From Acarospora socialis (lineage: Eukaryota > Ascomycota > Lecanoromycetes > Acarosporales > Acarosporaceae): 64,000 nt of DNA. The notes below the pieces were generated by a model, which did not search any database, had not been told where the DNA came from, and saw only the letters and a program-made list of their open reading frames with translations. The first letter of the stretch is position 1. Each line of letters begins with the position of its first letter. Below, piece by piece: positions 31,705-38,201 of the stretch. The position numbers and the translations under genes were made by a program. The stretch spans positions 1,245,001-1,309,000 of the forward strand of contig JAMYGW020000006.1 of NCBI GenBank assembly GCA_025617375.2. Reading direction: 5' to 3'.

Positions 31705-31709
31705 CTTAA

Positions 31710-32025
31710 TGTTATGTCCCAACTGAGATTCCTCGGTTATAGGGCTAGGGTTTGTGCTCTTTGATATAAAGGTCCAAAGGTTCTAGGTAAACAGTAGCTT
31801 TGTATTGTGTAACTAGATGAGTTGAACACGATCAATTTCATAAGAGAATCAATCCTACTATATAGAAATGAGCACACTGACATGTTTCGTGCTTCAGTGT
31901 TTCAATGTGCCCCTGGCACATGCTCATGAGGGAATGCTCAGCATTTTGTTGTTTCATGCTCAGGTCTACACCTCTCAGGTGTACTTCTGTGTTTCACTAT
32001 TTCTTTTTGAGATATGATTGTAACA
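31710..32025 (-). repeat. Gypsy 3' LTR
   Basis: 316-bp direct repeat. Compared with its partner it has TG where the partner has CA at several sites (TGTTATGTCC, GAAATGAGC, ATTGTGTAAC) and keeps CG at AACACGATC, where the partner has CA. Both keep CTCGGTTATAG. Confidence 0.95.
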
Positions 32026-32041
32026 TCATCTCCTTCCTTCT
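32026..32041 (-). promoter_or_regulatory. Polypurine tract of the gypsy element
   Basis: On the minus strand the 16 bases just inside the 3' LTR read AGAAGGAAGGAGATGA, all purine but one. This is the place and composition of the plus-strand primer in LTR elements. Confidence 0.75.
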
Positions 32042-32108
32042 AGGCACTAGTCCTCTAGGTCTATTTAAGTGAGAGTATATATTGGTGTCTGCTCATCACC
32101 CTTTGACA

Positions 32109-32621
32109 ATGCATTCAAAATCCAAAAATTGCCTTCAACTCACTGATACAATATTTTGTAAAGAAAATCCTGCACTTGTTTCTTGTGATTGCTGTCTGGG
32201 CATCAGTCTCTTGTGCATTGTAATGCCTCTTGATCTCTCTGCCTTGTCTGACTCATTGAAGTCTGCAAAGTGTGCTGAGTGTGTGCATCAAGGTTGTTTC
32301 TGTGTCGGTCTCTTCCTGGATTTTCTGGAATTTGTTCATTTGAAAACTGAAAATGAACTGTTGTTGGCTCTTGATGAGCAACTCCCCATGCTTCTTGCAA
32401 AAATTGCTAGATTACAGAAAACCCTGAAACAGTCTGAAGCTTGCATCAATACAAAAGCAAAGTGTCTTGCTGAAGAGCTTGTGAATGATAATGATGAGAC
32501 AGAGGATGAACTTCCTCAATCATTGTTGCAACTCATTAATGCAATGTCTTCATCTTTTTGGGCTGATCTTGACCTTGATCCCTCTTCTCAAAACATCAAA
32601 GCATTCTCACACAGTTCTTGA
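32109..32621 (+). CDS. Open antisense frame inside the gypsy element, 170 codons, CxxC protein
   Basis: This frame lies opposite to gag-pol, between the end of pol and the 3' LTR, and is open from an ATG to a TGA. It reads like a folded protein, not a shadow: a Cys cluster (SAKCAECVHQGCFC), a helical, probably coiled segment (LLLALDEQLPMLLAKIARLQ then KTLKQSE) and an acidic tail (NDNDETEDELPQSLLQL). Many Cys, His and Gln codons are TGN or CAN, as expected if former CGN arginines lost CpG. A TATA-like GTATATATT is about 35 bases upstream of the ATG. From memory, similar KCxECxxxGxxC plus coiled-coil hypothetical proteins are common in plant-associated ascomycetes, often near gypsy elements. 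Function is unknown. This copy may itself be mutated and silent. Confidence 0.6.
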   Translation: MHSKSKNCLQLTDTIFCKENPALVSCDCCLGISLLCIVMPLDLSALSDSLKSAKCAECVHQGCFCVGLFLDFLEFVHLKTENELLLALDEQLPMLLAKIARLQKTLKQSEACINTKAKCLAEELVNDNDETEDELPQSLLQLINAMSSSFWADLDLDPSSQNIKAFSHSS

Positions 32622-32639
32622 GATTCTCCCTGGGTTCCC

Positions 32640-32862
32640 AGGTGTTTTCTGAGGTATCATATTCTTTTCATTTTACAAGATAGTAGACTTTCTCACTAAT
32701 CATTCTTCTTTCTAGAATATCCTCAACTTCATATTCTTTGTTGGGTTCAACAGGTGTTTTGTTGGTTTGAAGTGGTATGAACTGATTGCAATGCTGTAGC
32801 ATGAATGCATGAAATACTGGGTGTATTCTCATTTCTTGAGGTAAGTCTAGCTCATAGCTCAA
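32640..32862 (-). pseudogene. Gypsy integrase C-terminal/chromodomain-adjacent segment
   Basis: The minus strand reads YELDLPQEMRIHPVFHAFML then HCNQFIPLQTN and YEVEDILERRM. This corresponds to the LPxxxxIHPVFHVSxL and Y.VE.IL..R pattern at the end of gypsy pol proteins that carry a chromodomain. No intact chromodomain follows. Confidence 0.8.
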
Positions 32863-33129
32863 TTTCTTGATGTTTCATTTTATCTTGAATGGTTCAATGT
32901 TCTTGTTTTTCAGCTTCTTGCTTCTTCCTTTTGTTCTTATGTTGTTTGTTCTTAGATATATCTTTTCTCTCTCTTCAAATGATTTTGCCTCTGTTGTTCA
33001 TTCTGTCTGCTGTTTGATCTGTTCTGTTAGGTCTTGGTGCAGTTTCTTTATTTAAACAATATTTAAGATTGCTTTCTGACTTCATGATTCATGTTCTTTG
33101 GGATCTTGTCATATCTTTGAGTTATAGTC

Positions 33130-33945
33130 ATAGTTTGCATAGAAAGGCGTTTCTCCCATGGTCTCATTTCTTGTGTTGTTGTACACAAACTGTGTCATTG
33201 ATAACAGTCATACCCAGTTGTTCTGGTCTTTGTTGACATAGTGTCTCAAGTATGTTTCTATCATTTGATTCATTCATTTGCTCTGTCTGTCTGTCTGTGA
33301 GTAATATGTGGTTAACATCTTATGTTTTATTCTGAGTTCTGTTGTGAGCATTTCTCAAAACTTGCTTGTAAACAGCTTGTCTCTATTGGTGATAAATTCT
33401 TTTGGTAGTCTGTGATTGCTAACCAACTCTCATAGTATTGTGTACATCAACATTGGTGCTGTTGTGATCTCTTTGAATGGAATGAACATTGTGTACTTGG
33501 TCAATCTGTTCACTATAGTCAATATGCTATTGAATCTTACCCCTCATGCTGGGTCCTTTGATGGTGGTAACTTTGTAATGAAGTTCATGGTAACTGACTC
33601 TCATGGTGCATTTGATGCACCTAGTTGTGTTACTTCATCATACTGTTTGTCTTGATTGATTTTATTTCTTTGACATGAGTTGCACACAACAATCATCCTG
33701 ATGACTTGATTTCTGAGATCACTAATGTTGTGTCTTCTTTGCACTAGATCTTTGGTGCATTTGATTTCTAAGTGTTCCCCAGCCTTGTTGTAGTGGCACA
33801 CTTCTATTAGTTCTTTGTTCATTAAGGAAGCTTGCTCTACCTTGTATGTTGCTGCTAAGTTCTTTATGAGGATTTCTTTGTTGTCTTCACTTAGAATTCC
33901 AGCATGTATCATTTGTACACCTTCATGATCAGATTGCCTGCTCAA
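33130..33945 (-). pseudogene. Gypsy integrase (zinc finger and core)
   Basis: The H2C2-type finger remnant (VCNSCQRNKINQ) is followed by the catalytic core in the minus-strand frame: SVTMNFITKLPPS, TIVNRLTKYTMFIPF, NRDKLFTSKFWEML, TYYSQTDRQTERMNQ and VYNNTRNETMGETPF. In TNRDKLF and TYYSQTDRQTER the family pattern S-D-R and H-P-Q-T-D-G-Q-T-E has changed residues. Stops interrupt the frame. Confidence 0.85.
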
Positions 33946-34521
33946 GGCATCTGCTTCACCATTCTCATTATCTTTCTTGTAATGAATCTGAAATTCATAA
34001 TCTGCTAACTGTTCTGCTCAATGAACTTGTTGTTGATTGAGTTGCTTTGTTGTTGTGAAGTTCCTCAGATTCTTGTGATTCATATAGATCTGAATTGGCT
34101 TGCTTGTTTCTGCAAGGTAAGGTCTTCAATCTTGTAGTGCTTCAACTATTGTGAGAAGTTTCTTGTCATGAACTTCATATCTTTTCTTGAATTCTGATAA
34201 CTTTCTAGATCAGTATGCTATGAGTCTCTGTTGCTCATCTTCAATCTGATATAGACATGCTTTTACTGCAAAATCTGAAGCATCAGTTTTCAGTGTTTTT
34301 TCACATGCTGGGTTGGGTATTCTCAGGTGTGTCATTCCACTAAGACTTTCCTTTAATGTGTGAAATGCATCTTTCTGTTCTTCATTCCAATGCTATTCTT
34401 TGCTCTTGTGTGTCAAACATGTTAGTGGTTTCACAATTCTTGCATAGTTTGGTACAAACTTCCAATAATAGTTCATTAACTCTAGAAAGACTTGTACTTC
34501 TTTGATCTGTTTTGGTGTTGC

Positions 34522-35090
34522 TCAGTTTCTGACTGCTTTTGTTTTCTTTGAATTCTTCTTGATCTGTTCAGGTTGAATCACATAACTCAGAAACTCAACT
34601 TTCTTGGTTTTGAACCTGCTTTTAGATTTTTTCACATATAAAGCTCTCTCATTGAGCTTCATCAATACTCTGTGTACATGTTTGTGGTGCTTCTCAAGGT
34701 CTTTCAAATATATGAGGATGTTGTCAAGGTACATGATCACAAAATCATCAAGATACTCTCTCAACATGTTGTTGATTAATCTCTGAAAGATGACTGAAGC
34801 ATTCTTTAGCTCAAACAGCATGACAGTATATTCATAATGTCTGTATCTTGTTCAGAATGCTGTTTTTCATTCTTCATCTTCTTTCATTCTAACTTGATAA
34901 TAGGTGTCCTTAAGGTCTAAGCTTGTAAACCACTTAGTCTTACTTAATTGATCTTGCAACTCTTCTATCAATGGTAGGGAATAACTGTCTTGATGAGTTA
35001 TCTTGTTGAGTTGTCTGTAGTTGACACATAGTCATTTCTTGTCATCTTTCTTTGGTACAAACAGGATCAGGTATTCTGTTGATGACTTTA
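34522..35090 (-). pseudogene. Gypsy reverse transcriptase
   Basis: The minus-strand translation gives CVNYRQLNKIT, FTSLDLKDTYYQVRM, TAFWTRYRHYEY, MLFELKNASVIFQRLIN, then the active-site stretch FVIMYLDNILIYLKD. The YLDD box has become YLDN, a G-to-A type loss of a catalytic aspartate. Stops and further changes break the frame. Confidence 0.9.
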
Positions 35091-36539
35091 ATGATTTAAT
35101 GAATTTTCTCTTTAGATTCTTGTCAAGGTAAGTTCTTACTTTCTTGAGTTGGTCTTTGCTCATTGGGTATAGTGACATTCATTTGAGTTGCTTTCCATTC
35201 AATAGCAGTATTTTGTGATCCCATGACTTATGTTCTGGTAAGCTCATTTTGAGTTGTTTGAGAATTTCATATGTGTCTTCCACTGCACATATTTCTTTTG
35301 TAACTCAATCAATTCATGAATTTCTTCTGCATAATCAGGGCATTTCTAGTACCATGTTGTATCTGATTGATCCCATAACATCAAATGTTATCTTCTGTGA
35401 GTTTTCAAGAATTGAGGTCTTCACACAGATTTTCTCATCAATTCTTTCAATGATTCTGTTCACCATTCTTATGTTGAATGAACAGTGCACTTGCTGTGTC
35501 TCTAATTCCAACATGTTGACTATTTGTCAGCTCATAATGTTACTGTTTGCTTCAGAATCTACCAATGCATTGATTTGATGTTCATCAATCATAATCTTGG
35601 TTCATATTCTATAATCATTGTTCTGTCTTTGAGATGCCACTAGCTTCTGTTTCTTTAGTCTTGTTGAGAAAGCTCTTCATTTTTTGACTCACTTGGTTGT
35701 TTGACTCATCTTCAAAGTTCTTGAAATCATCTTGATTTCTTTCTGACCATAAGACTTGCATACTCTAGGCTGTGCTGCTCAATGCATCTTTTGAAATGTA
35801 ATTGAGGTTCATACTGATTGTATTTCATCTGCAATTGGCTCTCAAAGACTCTTATTCTTTGCAGAAATTCAGATGATATATATTCTTCACTGAAGATTCA
35901 TCTGTCTTCATTCTGCATGATATATTCTTCAGGTAAGCATATCTCAACCTTGTGGCTTTTTGTCTTTCAAACAAGAGATTTTGACAATGTTGCATCATCA
36001 CTGCTGAAACATTCATCTTTAACAGCTGTCATCAGTTTCTCTAACTGATTGCATGCCTTCTGTTCTTTTGCTTCTCTGTGTTGTGCTTTCTGTTTTCAAG
36101 CTTGCATTTCTTGCTTGAGCTCTTGCTTCTCAAATTGAAGCTTTTCTTCTTTCAACACTTGTCATTGGTTCTCAGAGTGCTGGTACTCTGTCTTCAGTCT
36201 CATGTTGATTTTTCATTGATTGACTTCTTCTTGGTCTGCATCTGAATTCAAGGCAATTCAGGTGCTATCACTGTAGTCTTCTTCTATCTGAGTTTCACAA
36301 GTATCAGTCTCTTTAATCTTGGTTTTCAGAACACACAGTTCTTTTTTCACAGTATTGTCTGATCTAGGCCGTCCTGTGATATCATAAGTCCCTTGTTTCT
36401 GGTGTGACTTCTTTGAATAGTATTTGACTTCATTCTTGCTGCTCATGTGGGTTCAACACATGTCATCATAGCAAGCTGTTCAGCTAAGATCATCATGCAC
36501 TACTCCCTTAGTTGTGATTGCAGCTTCCTTCCTTTTTCC

Positions 36540-36615
36540 CTTTGGTTTCTTGCAGTCTTGCGCAAGATGCCCAATAATATTACAATTATAGCATTTTCAC
36601 ATTTCTTGATAGCTT
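36540..36615 (-). pseudogene. Gypsy gag zinc knuckle
   Basis: The minus strand encodes KCYNCNIIGHLAQDCKKPKG, a complete C-x2-C-x4-H-x4-C nucleocapsid knuckle. A stop lies directly before it. Parts of gag continue at higher coordinates up to the 5' LTR. Confidence 0.85.
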
Positions 36616-37432
36616 GAAGACTTCTCTTCTGAGAATTGTTTCTTTTCTTGCAATGCTCTCTTCAGTCTCTGTACTGAAGGTCAATCTTGTTTCATCATGT
36701 TGAGATTCATGAAGTTCAGATAATGTTGTCTTTGATTTTCTCTATTGACTCATTCTGTTCATCTCTGATGTCAGTAGTCTTTTCTTTTCATCTGTTGCTC
36801 TCATTGGTGGTCATCTATTGTGATTGTCTTGTTGATAAGTTCTTGTAGATCATCTGACCTGTTGCTTTGTGCAATCTCATCTTTGATAGATTTCTTCAAG
36901 CTTCAATAATAAGTTGATGCTAACTGATCTGAGTTTCATTGCATAAGCACCACAATTCATTGAAACTCTGCCACATACTTGACTGCAAATTCTTCTTGCT
37001 GTAATGTGTGAATTTTTTGTTTTGCTGCACATTTCTCATCAACCACCTCAAAGATTCTTCTCAGCTCTTCTTTGAACTGCATTCAGTTCTCTATGCAAGA
37101 TGTATTTCATTCTTGATCAGGAATGCTCTTGACCATGAACTTGTTGAGCTGTGATTTGATTCAGTCAAATGCCATGTCCTTCATGTAGAATGTTGTGAAT
37201 AAAACTCTGTTGATGTTGCTTTCAAACTTCTTTTGGTTGAAGCTGACATACAGGTCAATCTGGGCAAGAAATTGCCTCAGAGTTCATCAATCTCCTGTAA
37301 AGTTCTCTGGAGTCTTGACTTTGAGTACTTTGTGATTGATGTTGACTATCTTTGTTGATTTGATGCTCTGTGACACACTGTCTGAGGTTGATTCTTTGAA
37401 TGACATTCTTTATATTGTAAGGGTGTTCAAAG

Positions 37433-37748
37433 TGTTACATCCCAACTGAGATTTCTCGGTTATAGGGCTAGGGTTTGTGCTCTTTGATATAAAGGTTCAA
37501 AGGTTCTAGGTAAACAGTAGCTTTGTATTGCATAACTAGATGAGTTGAACACAATCAATTTCATAAGAGAATCAATCCTACTATATAGAAACAAGCACAC
37601 TGACACACCTCATGCTTCAGTGTTTCAGTGTGTCCCTGACACACACTCACAAGAAAACACCTGACATTTTGTTGTTTCATGCTCAGATCTATGCCCCTCA
37701 GGTGTATTTCTGTGTTTCACTATTTCTTTTTGGGGTATGGTTGTAACA
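37433..37748 (-). repeat. Gypsy 5' LTR
   Basis: 316-bp partner of 31710-32025. It has CA at several sites where the other copy has TG (TGTTACATCC, ATTGCATAAC, GAAACAAGC). Confidence 0.95.
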
Positions 37749-38201
37749 CTTAATCAGTTACTCAATATTGACATAATTTAAGTGATTTAATCAACAGTGT
37801 CACATTTTAAAAGATATCTTGAACTCTTTATTAATCACAAAAACATAAAACTGAGATGTATTGTTGAGTTATAGTCAGAATAAGTCATCAACTTCAGATG
37901 CATATCTGATGATTTTATCATTATAATGTAAAATGCAATTCTTCATATTGAACATAATGTCTTCAACTCATATACAAATACTGAAAATAAGATTTGCAGA
38001 GATGATAAAAAAGTGTATAATATTATTGAGAATGATCTCTTGTATATTTTCATCAGAACAAATTAGATATAGAGAGACTTGACTTTTTTTTATAATTTTA
38101 GCTGTTTCATTAGCTGTAAGAAGAAATCTATCAATAGATTTATAAATGATGAAAAACTCACATGTTGAGCACAAGTGATCAGAGACTGCAGTGTTGACAG
38201 T

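What the first reader, a model, noticed from the sequence alone, without database searches (positions are those of the whole stretch)
32109..32621. Antisense open frame survives inside a mutated gypsy element
The gag and pol frames of the 31710-37748 element are full of stops, yet the opposite strand between pol and the 3' LTR keeps a 170-codon frame. It has protein-like features: a Cys cluster (SAKCAECVHQGCFC), a coiled segment and an acidic tail. Many TGN and CAN codons look like former CGN arginines, so a once Arg-rich, perhaps nucleic-acid-binding protein is likely. An accessory gene carried in antisense by a retrotransposon could regulate its sense transcript, silence or protect the element, or act on the host.
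Basis: partly seen in the sequence, partly recalled or inferred. Interest (0 to 1): 0.75.

Follow-up and report, generated by a model that had tools for sequence, protein, structure and literature searches.

The report
Backward zinc-cluster gene in fungal retrotransposons
A family of mutated virus-like mobile elements in this fungal genome carries a small gene written on the opposite strand; it encodes what looks like a fungal zinc-cluster protein and has been kept by selection, so the element may have its own built-in regulator.

Summary
An ATG-initiated 170-codon frame lies at 32109-32621 (+), antisense to a CpG-mutated gypsy element (LTRs 31710-32025, 37433-37748), tail to tail with pol and beside the 3' LTR. 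It is a gene family, not a lucky open frame: three searches give 227 distinct places in this genome; 120 of 150 pol 3' ends have it tail to tail, and so have 12 of 12 sampled from the other 30. Transversion-only dN/dS is 0.15-0.54 in this frame, against 0.86 or more in four other frames and 0.48-0.85 in the sense frame sharing third positions. The protein has six cysteines in Zn2Cys6 spacing, a 60-residue helix and an acidic stretch; models resemble GAL4, LAC9 and HAP1, with weak scores. A TATA motif precedes the ATG in 40 of 40 copies. The gene varies with its LTR (r=0.86), not with pol (r=0.12): gene plus LTR were swapped between lineages. Best reading: an antisense-encoded regulator of its own LTR, working like HTLV-1 HBZ. 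Expression and DNA binding are not shown, and the basic residues of classic Zn2Cys6 recognition are mostly missing. Antisense accessory genes are known (Boty brtn, plant Retand).

The parts
31705..31709 (.). target site duplication CTTAA, left copy (right copy 37749-37753)
   Evidence: read directly around the LTR ends
31710..32025 (-). 3' LTR of the element (sense is the - strand); the part next to 32025 is U3
   Evidence: aligned with 37433-37748, 281 of 317 identical; U3 side follows from the sense strand
32019..32078 (.). block of about 60 nt (LTR tip, polypurine tract, antisense TATA) nearly free of transversions between copy groups A and D
   Evidence: 0.000 tv/site in five of six 10-nt windows from -90 to -31, 0.054 in the sixth; 0.19-0.31 on the LTR side and 0.21-0.69 on the ATG side; polypurine tract by inspection
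32062..32069 (+). TATA-like motif TATTTAAG, presumed core promoter of the antisense gene
   Evidence: TAT[AT]TAA[GA] starting at -41 to -56 from the ATG in 40 of 40 copies; 1.9% per copy in mononucleotide shuffles
32109..32621 (+). antisense accessory gene, 170 aa, ATG to TGA (P0001)
32175..32312 (+). zinc-cluster region, residues 23-68; Cys 26, 29, 36, 55, 58, 65
   Evidence: models; fold matches
32316..32495 (+). long helix (coiled coil), residues 70-129
   Evidence: AlphaFold2 model
32487..32534 (+). acidic stretch at the end of and after the helix
32536..32621 (.). overlap of the antisense gene's 3' end with the pol frame's 3' end in this copy
32671..32862 (-). pol C-terminal part with chromodomain-like sequence, used as pol marker
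   Evidence: the name chromodomain rests on recall of the motif
37433..37748 (-). 5' LTR of the element

Best explanation
The frame is the decayed copy of an accessory gene that a clade of fungal gypsy retrotransposons carries on the antisense strand between pol and the 3' LTR. SHOWN by computation: the gene was found beside nearly every pol 3' end examined, was under purifying selection in the antisense frame, has a conserved TATA-like motif upstream, encodes a six-cysteine protein whose predicted fold resembles Zn2Cys6 domains (weak scores), and varies with its LTR rather than with pol. INFERRED: the gene is transcribed from its own promoter at the inner edge of the 3' LTR; the protein binds zinc, dimerises through its coiled coil, enters the nucleus and binds the U3 part of its own LTR (or nearby), so tuning or protecting the element's sense transcription. 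Because both LTRs of a new copy take U3 from the RNA's 3' end (established retroelement biology), gene and promoter move together as a cassette. It would thus work like the antisense HBZ gene of HTLV-1.
For: Copies: 150 scored hits of 327 candidates; 227 distinct places in three searches, one of them entered in part. Position: 89 of 150 pol 3' ends have it 51-64 nt away on the opposite strand, 120 of 150 with two more queries, and 12 of 12 fetched out of the 30 left; 40 of 40 loci fetched for the gene have the pol end facing it. Selection: transversion dN/dS A-B 0.16 [0.10-0.26], A-C 0.34 [0.21-0.56], A-D 0.54 [0.43-0.73], B-D 0.50 [0.39-0.67], within A 0.15 [0.08-0.27], within D 0.38 [0.27-0.52]; the five other frames 0.48 or more. 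Protein: 36 of 39 homologues fit CX2CX6CX(5-20)CX2CX(6-8)C; the six Cys are kept in 35-40 of 40 copies against a mean majority fraction of 0.66; 13 of 14 listed PDB entries (8 proteins) are Zn2Cys6 domains, LAC9 1.7 A over 33 and GAL4 1.8 A over 36 residues. Promoter. Cassette: pol data reject group D as one clade (AU p=0.0005) while the gene's tree gives it 97 support; LTR-ORF r=0.86, LTR-pol 0.28, ORF-pol 0.12, and within D 0.79, 0.09, 0.03.
Confidence: 0.55

Rival explanations
1. The protein is an accessory part of the particle or integration complex (for instance a nucleic-acid chaperone or a targeting partner of the pol chromodomain), not a transcription regulator.
For: The first half of the zinc cluster mostly lacks basic residues, so classic promoter recognition is doubtful; N-terminal helix and coiled coil could serve assembly.
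Against: It does not vary with pol (ORF-pol r=0.12, within D 0.03), as a partner of integrase should; it has a conserved TATA motif upstream.
Confidence: 0.2
2. It is an element-encoded anti-silencing or self-limitation factor that recognises its own LTR type, so gene and target diversify together, as VANC and its motifs do in Arabidopsis VANDAL elements.
For: Gene and LTR vary together and are exchanged against a common pol; CpG sites are destroyed in this element (o/e 0.04); VANC precedent (PMC5735166, abstract read).
Against: No motif was identified in the LTRs, and no methylation or silencing data are held. This is a special case of the best explanation, told apart only by experiment.
Confidence: 0.15
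3. The functional product is the antisense RNA, and the open frame is incidental.
For: Antisense transcripts of retrotransposons can act as RNA (discussed for plants in PMC7264820, passages read).
Against: Selection follows the codons of this frame better than any other; 36 of 39 protein homologues, at 22-57% identity, keep the six-Cys spacing.
Confidence: 0.04
4. Chance open frame, or a shadow of a sense-strand constraint.
For: One sense frame that shares third positions shows 0.48-0.85; the last 18-28 codons overlap pol, and there dN/dS is 0.68-1.02 with limits that cross 1.
Against: The sense frames carry 4.7-9.1 stops per copy against 1.6 in the gene's frame over the same columns, and dN/dS in the gene's frame is the lowest of the six frames in all six comparisons.
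Confidence: 0.01

Closest known systems
brtn, antisense gene of Boty-like gypsy elements, Botrytis cinerea (Zhao et al. 2011, Virology 417:248; paper not held, known to me here only through citing papers)
   Same: Fungal gypsy element, antisense gene between pol and 3' LTR, function unknown (as described in PMC7264820, passages read; PMC8365987, passages)
   Different: Paper and sequence are not held, so homology could not be tested; no zinc cluster, selection test or LTR linkage is mentioned for it in the passages read
HBZ of HTLV-1 and APH-2
   Same: Antisense gene next to the 3' LTR; HBZ is a nuclear transcription regulator with a bZIP dimerisation segment and an activation domain (PMC10186651, passages read)
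   Different: HBZ is a bZIP protein in a retrovirus, with spliced forms and antisense promoters within the 3' LTR; here a Zn2Cys6-like fold and a TATA motif between LTR and gene; no homology claimed
Plant Retand TRP28, Grande gene23 and RIRE2 antisense ORFs
   Same: [quoted passage not shown] TRP28 predicted to bind DNA (PMC11963269, passages); Grande gene23 nuclear and transcribed from its own promoter (PMC7264820, passages)
   Different: Other protein families, plant hosts; in Retand a pol-LTR region of 2.9-6.6 kb
Fungal Zn2Cys6 binuclear cluster proteins (GAL4, LAC9, HAP1; PF00172)
   Same: Six-Cys spacing, a short helix after each CX2C, following long helix; best structural matches
   Different: Basic residues between Cys2 and Cys3 mostly missing; no Fungal_trans match in the window protein
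PF12511 DUF3716 and the P0051-like family of Talaromyces and Fusarium
   Same: Similar CX2C ... CAACTRRGRPC core followed by helix; weak DUF3716 matches in 4 of 39
   Different: Whether these genes sit in transposons is unknown; P0051 itself gave no DUF3716 match
VANC anti-silencing proteins of Arabidopsis VANDAL elements
   Same: Element-encoded, sequence-specific, protein and target evolve together (PMC5735166, abstract)
   Different: DNA transposons and an unrelated protein (recalled); no anti-silencing shown here

Membership tests
Zn(II)2Cys6 binuclear cluster domain | CX2CX6CX(5-12)CX2CX(6-8)C spacing | tested here: met
   33 of 39 homologues; 36 of 39 if the linker may be up to 20; the window copy itself has an 18-residue linker and fits only the looser form
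Zn(II)2Cys6 binuclear cluster domain | PF00172 gathering score reached | tested here: inconclusive
   matches in 17 of 39 homologues at E up to 1, best 3.2e-4; the rows printed with scores (P0002, P0004, P0051) lie below the cut-off, none for the window protein; scores of the other members were not shown
Zn(II)2Cys6 binuclear cluster domain | basic residues between Cys2 and Cys3 (strict PROSITE-type pattern, recalled) | tested here: not met
   0 of 39; 23 of 36 have no K, R or H there
Zn(II)2Cys6 binuclear cluster domain | fold of the domain | tested here: inconclusive
   4 of 5 and 13 of 14 listed VIA-align entries are Zn2Cys6 domains, but all scores are low
Zn(II)2Cys6 binuclear cluster domain | binds two zinc ions and DNA | not testable with these tools
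   needs protein
[quoted passage not shown]
HBZ-like regulator (works like, not a member) | transcribed in antisense from the 3' LTR side | not tested
   only a conserved TATA motif, 40 of 40 copies
brtn of Boty | protein homology to BRTN | not testable with these tools
   sequence and paper not held
DUF3716 (PF12511) | gathering score reached | tested here: inconclusive
   4 of 39 homologues match, best E 0.024 (P0004, 15 bits against a cut-off of 22); none for the window protein

The most novel reading that the evidence does not exclude
A fungal retrotransposon lineage carries an exchangeable control cassette: a U3 promoter plus an antisense zinc-cluster gene whose protein recognises that promoter type, either to shield it from the host's CpG-directed silencing or to decide which sister elements may be expressed. 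Lineages with a common pol swap cassettes, as immunity or specificity modules are swapped in phages.
Probability: 0.22. Interest if true: 0.88.

Novelty: new variant of a known kind. Interest (0 to 1): 0.72.

Why it matters
Antisense genes next to the 3' LTR are known in HTLV, plant gypsy elements and Boty of Botrytis, but in retrotransposons their function is open (PMC7264820, passages read). Here the family is large, shows selection on the protein, has a fold of DNA-binding type and a conserved promoter motif, and varies with its LTR. That turns an open question into a direct test: does each protein bind its own LTR type? It would also be a parallel to the HBZ arrangement that uses a transcription-factor fold typical of fungi.

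Tried and rejected
Gp-FAR-1, DUF5063, AAA_6, HALZ and many other Pfam matches look like coiled-coil resemblances; they differ from member to member, and those printed with scores lie below their cut-offs. PDB sequence searches: one chance-level hit, then designed or natural helical and coiled-coil chains and a few zinc-finger or receptor chains at E above 0.3. Fold searches: no match reached E 0.001. IMG/VR: 98 pattern matches, no relative. The last protein search went to P0051 to ask about a host origin; it found 15 proteins (P0051 included) of a family with Talaromyces and Fusarium members of unknown context, so the origin stays open. I asked whether a CTCGG site in the LTR is specially spared from CpG loss: among 13 of 20 group A copies with a readable site 3 keep it and 10 have lost it, so no. 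The idea that this copy's open frame was itself kept by selection is rejected. Selection in the pol-overlap part of the gene could not be shown.

Full report
What is there. The frame at 32109-32621 reads on the + strand from ATG to TGA, 170 aa. The gypsy element around it runs on the - strand: RT-, integrase- and chromodomain-like pieces lie to the right and read leftwards (names from recall of the motifs). The LTRs are 31710-32025 and 37433-37748, 281 of 317 positions identical, flanked by CTTAA (read). The ATG is therefore 83 nt from the inner edge of the 3' LTR, and the gene runs towards pol; its 3' end overlaps the pol frame by 86 nt in this copy, and the commonest overlap is 53 nt (28 of 40 copies, counted to the first TAA or TAG). 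CpG observed/expected is 0.04 in the element and 0.90 in the rest of the window, with TG 1.51 and CA 1.67, so the decay is CpG-directed. The host is a fungus by its content: 67 matches to Fungal_trans (PF04082) in a 31.1 Mb genome, none in 14 control genomes. The species is not known to me.

More than chance. A search of the genome with the 170 aa gave 150 scored hits of 327 candidates; apart from the window itself they run from 34 to 82% identity, most over nearly the full length, and 3 of the 150 have no inner stop. Forty copies aligned in full contain 108 inner stops: 83 TGA, 25 TAA, no TAG; the excess of TGA is what CpG decay of CGA would give. So the open frame of the window copy may be luck, but the family is not. 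39 of 40 copies have ATG at the aligned start.

Position. With the pol C-terminal peptide as marker, 150 hits of 335 candidates were scored. Of the 150 antisense hits, 96 have a marker within 3 kb: 89 on the opposite strand 51-64 nt downstream (69 at 52 nt) and 7 elsewhere; 54 have none in the capped list. Conversely 89 of 150 markers have the gene; adding the searches with P0015 (150 rows) and P0012 (7 of its 150 rows used) adds 31 of the other 61, where these longer queries reach to the marker or slightly over it, and so makes 120 of 150. Of the 30 markers left, 12 were fetched, and 12 of 12 have a match to the gene in antisense, in L049 to its second part only; 18 were not looked at. The three searches together give 227 distinct places. 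The gene is thus a regular part of this element clade.

Selection. Because CpG decay makes transitions everywhere, I counted transversions. Forty copies were used: group A, the 20 best hits; B 5, C 2 and D 13, picked by hand from the more distant rows; the groups go by similarity of this gene. Over the part that does not overlap pol, dN/dS in the gene's frame is 0.16 (A-B), 0.34 (A-C), 0.54 (A-D), 0.50 (B-D), 0.15 (within A) and 0.38 (within D), all bootstrap limits below 1. Of the other five frames, four run from 0.86 to 32; the fifth, the sense frame that shares third positions, shows 0.48-0.85 and carries 6.6 stops per copy against 1.6. Third positions hold 0.72 [0.60-0.87] of transversions in A-B and 0.45 [0.38-0.51] in A-D, where a third is expected. 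The alignment was made in the gene's frame, which could favour it in gapped A-D pairs. By region (A against B and C): zinc cluster 0.22 [0.10-0.46], coiled coil 0.18 [0.09-0.34]; N-terminal helix and tail 0.35 with limits that cross 1; pol overlap 1.02. In A-D the zinc cluster stands at 0.63 [0.39-1.19] and the coiled coil at 0.58 [0.41-0.81]. The pol end serves as a rough positive control: 0.32-0.76 with wide limits, some above 1.

A promoter. TAT[AT]TAA[GA] starts 41-56 nt before the ATG in 40 of 40 copies; mononucleotide shuffles of the same stretches give it in 1.9%, and it occurs in 1 of 40 on the other strand of that stretch and in 1 of 40 within the gene. Between groups A and D, five of six 10-nt windows from -90 to -31 hold no transversion and one holds 0.054 per site, while the leader and the LTR on either side differ at 0.19-0.69. 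Part of the block is the LTR tip and polypurine tract, which serve the sense strand; the TATA part is most simply an antisense core promoter.

A cassette. Groups A and D have 76% identical pol ends but 41% identical antisense proteins. Transversions per site fall from 0.24-0.36 in the first 360 nt of the gene to 0.003 at its end and 0.01-0.06 in pol, while the LTR and leader stand at 0.12-0.25. On purine/pyrimidine data the pol sequences reject group D as a clade (AU p=0.0005), whereas the tree of the gene's first 120 codons has it with 97 support; group A is not one clade in either tree. LTR distance follows the gene (r=0.86, Mantel p=0.0005) and only weakly pol (0.28, p=0.03); gene and pol are uncorrelated (0.12, p=0.11). 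Within group D alone the values are 0.79, 0.09 and 0.03, so the two-cluster sampling does not explain it. Gene and U3 LTR have been exchanged together against pol. Adjacency could explain this, but pol is at least as near to the gene as the LTR is, and the conserved block between LTR and gene offers a place to switch as well, though a shorter one.

Interpretation. A zinc-cluster-like, coiled-coil protein with an acidic stretch, written on the antisense strand and inherited with its promoter LTR, is best read as a regulator that acts on that LTR, as HBZ acts on the HTLV-1 LTR (PMC10186651, passages read). Transcription, zinc and DNA binding and the sign of regulation are inference. Antisense genes at this place are known: brtn in Boty (passages about it in PMC7264820, PMC8365987, PMC4227169 and PMC5987419), and Retand, Grande and RIRE2 in plants (passages). 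The word antisense does not occur in the held main texts of PMC3248453, PMC5872316 and PMC4427930 on LTR elements of fungi, Coccidioides and Paracoccidioides (term searches). Searches that combine retrotransposon terms with antisense, zinc cluster, Zn2Cys6 or binuclear cluster listed no paper whose title or abstract start describes such a zinc-cluster gene (listings); most subscription papers are not held.

Noticed in passing
window 31710-37748 against the rest of the window: CpG observed/expected 0.04 in the element and 0.90 outside, TG 1.51 and CA 1.67: mutation aimed at CpG in the element.
   Followed up: partly
pol end of 40 copies; window about 32668: In 38 of 40 copies the first stop of the pol frame after the marker stands at the same place, 46 nt short of the antisense gene's end. 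A shared stop rather than scattered decay; I did not ask why.
   Followed up: no
L011, L017, L026, L027: A second element lies within the same 8.5 kb (further ORF, pol-end, IN or RT matches): elements are clustered, back to back or nested.
   Followed up: no
P0051, P0053, P0054-P0066: A family with Talaromyces and Fusarium members, mostly about 200 aa, with a similar Cys core and helix and no precomputed Pfam domain; one UniRef entry of it is called DNA repair protein RAD50, which looks like a misnaming. It may be related to the source of the gene.
   Followed up: partly
L010, L012 and others, about -75 to -31 from the ATG: The conserved block holds a CTAG-spacer-CTAG pattern just before the TATA motif in many copies, a possible binding site (by eye).
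   Followed up: no
G000:C2:1988907-1989044: The only DUF3716 match found in the genome lies about 0.56 kb beyond one antisense gene copy.
   Followed up: no
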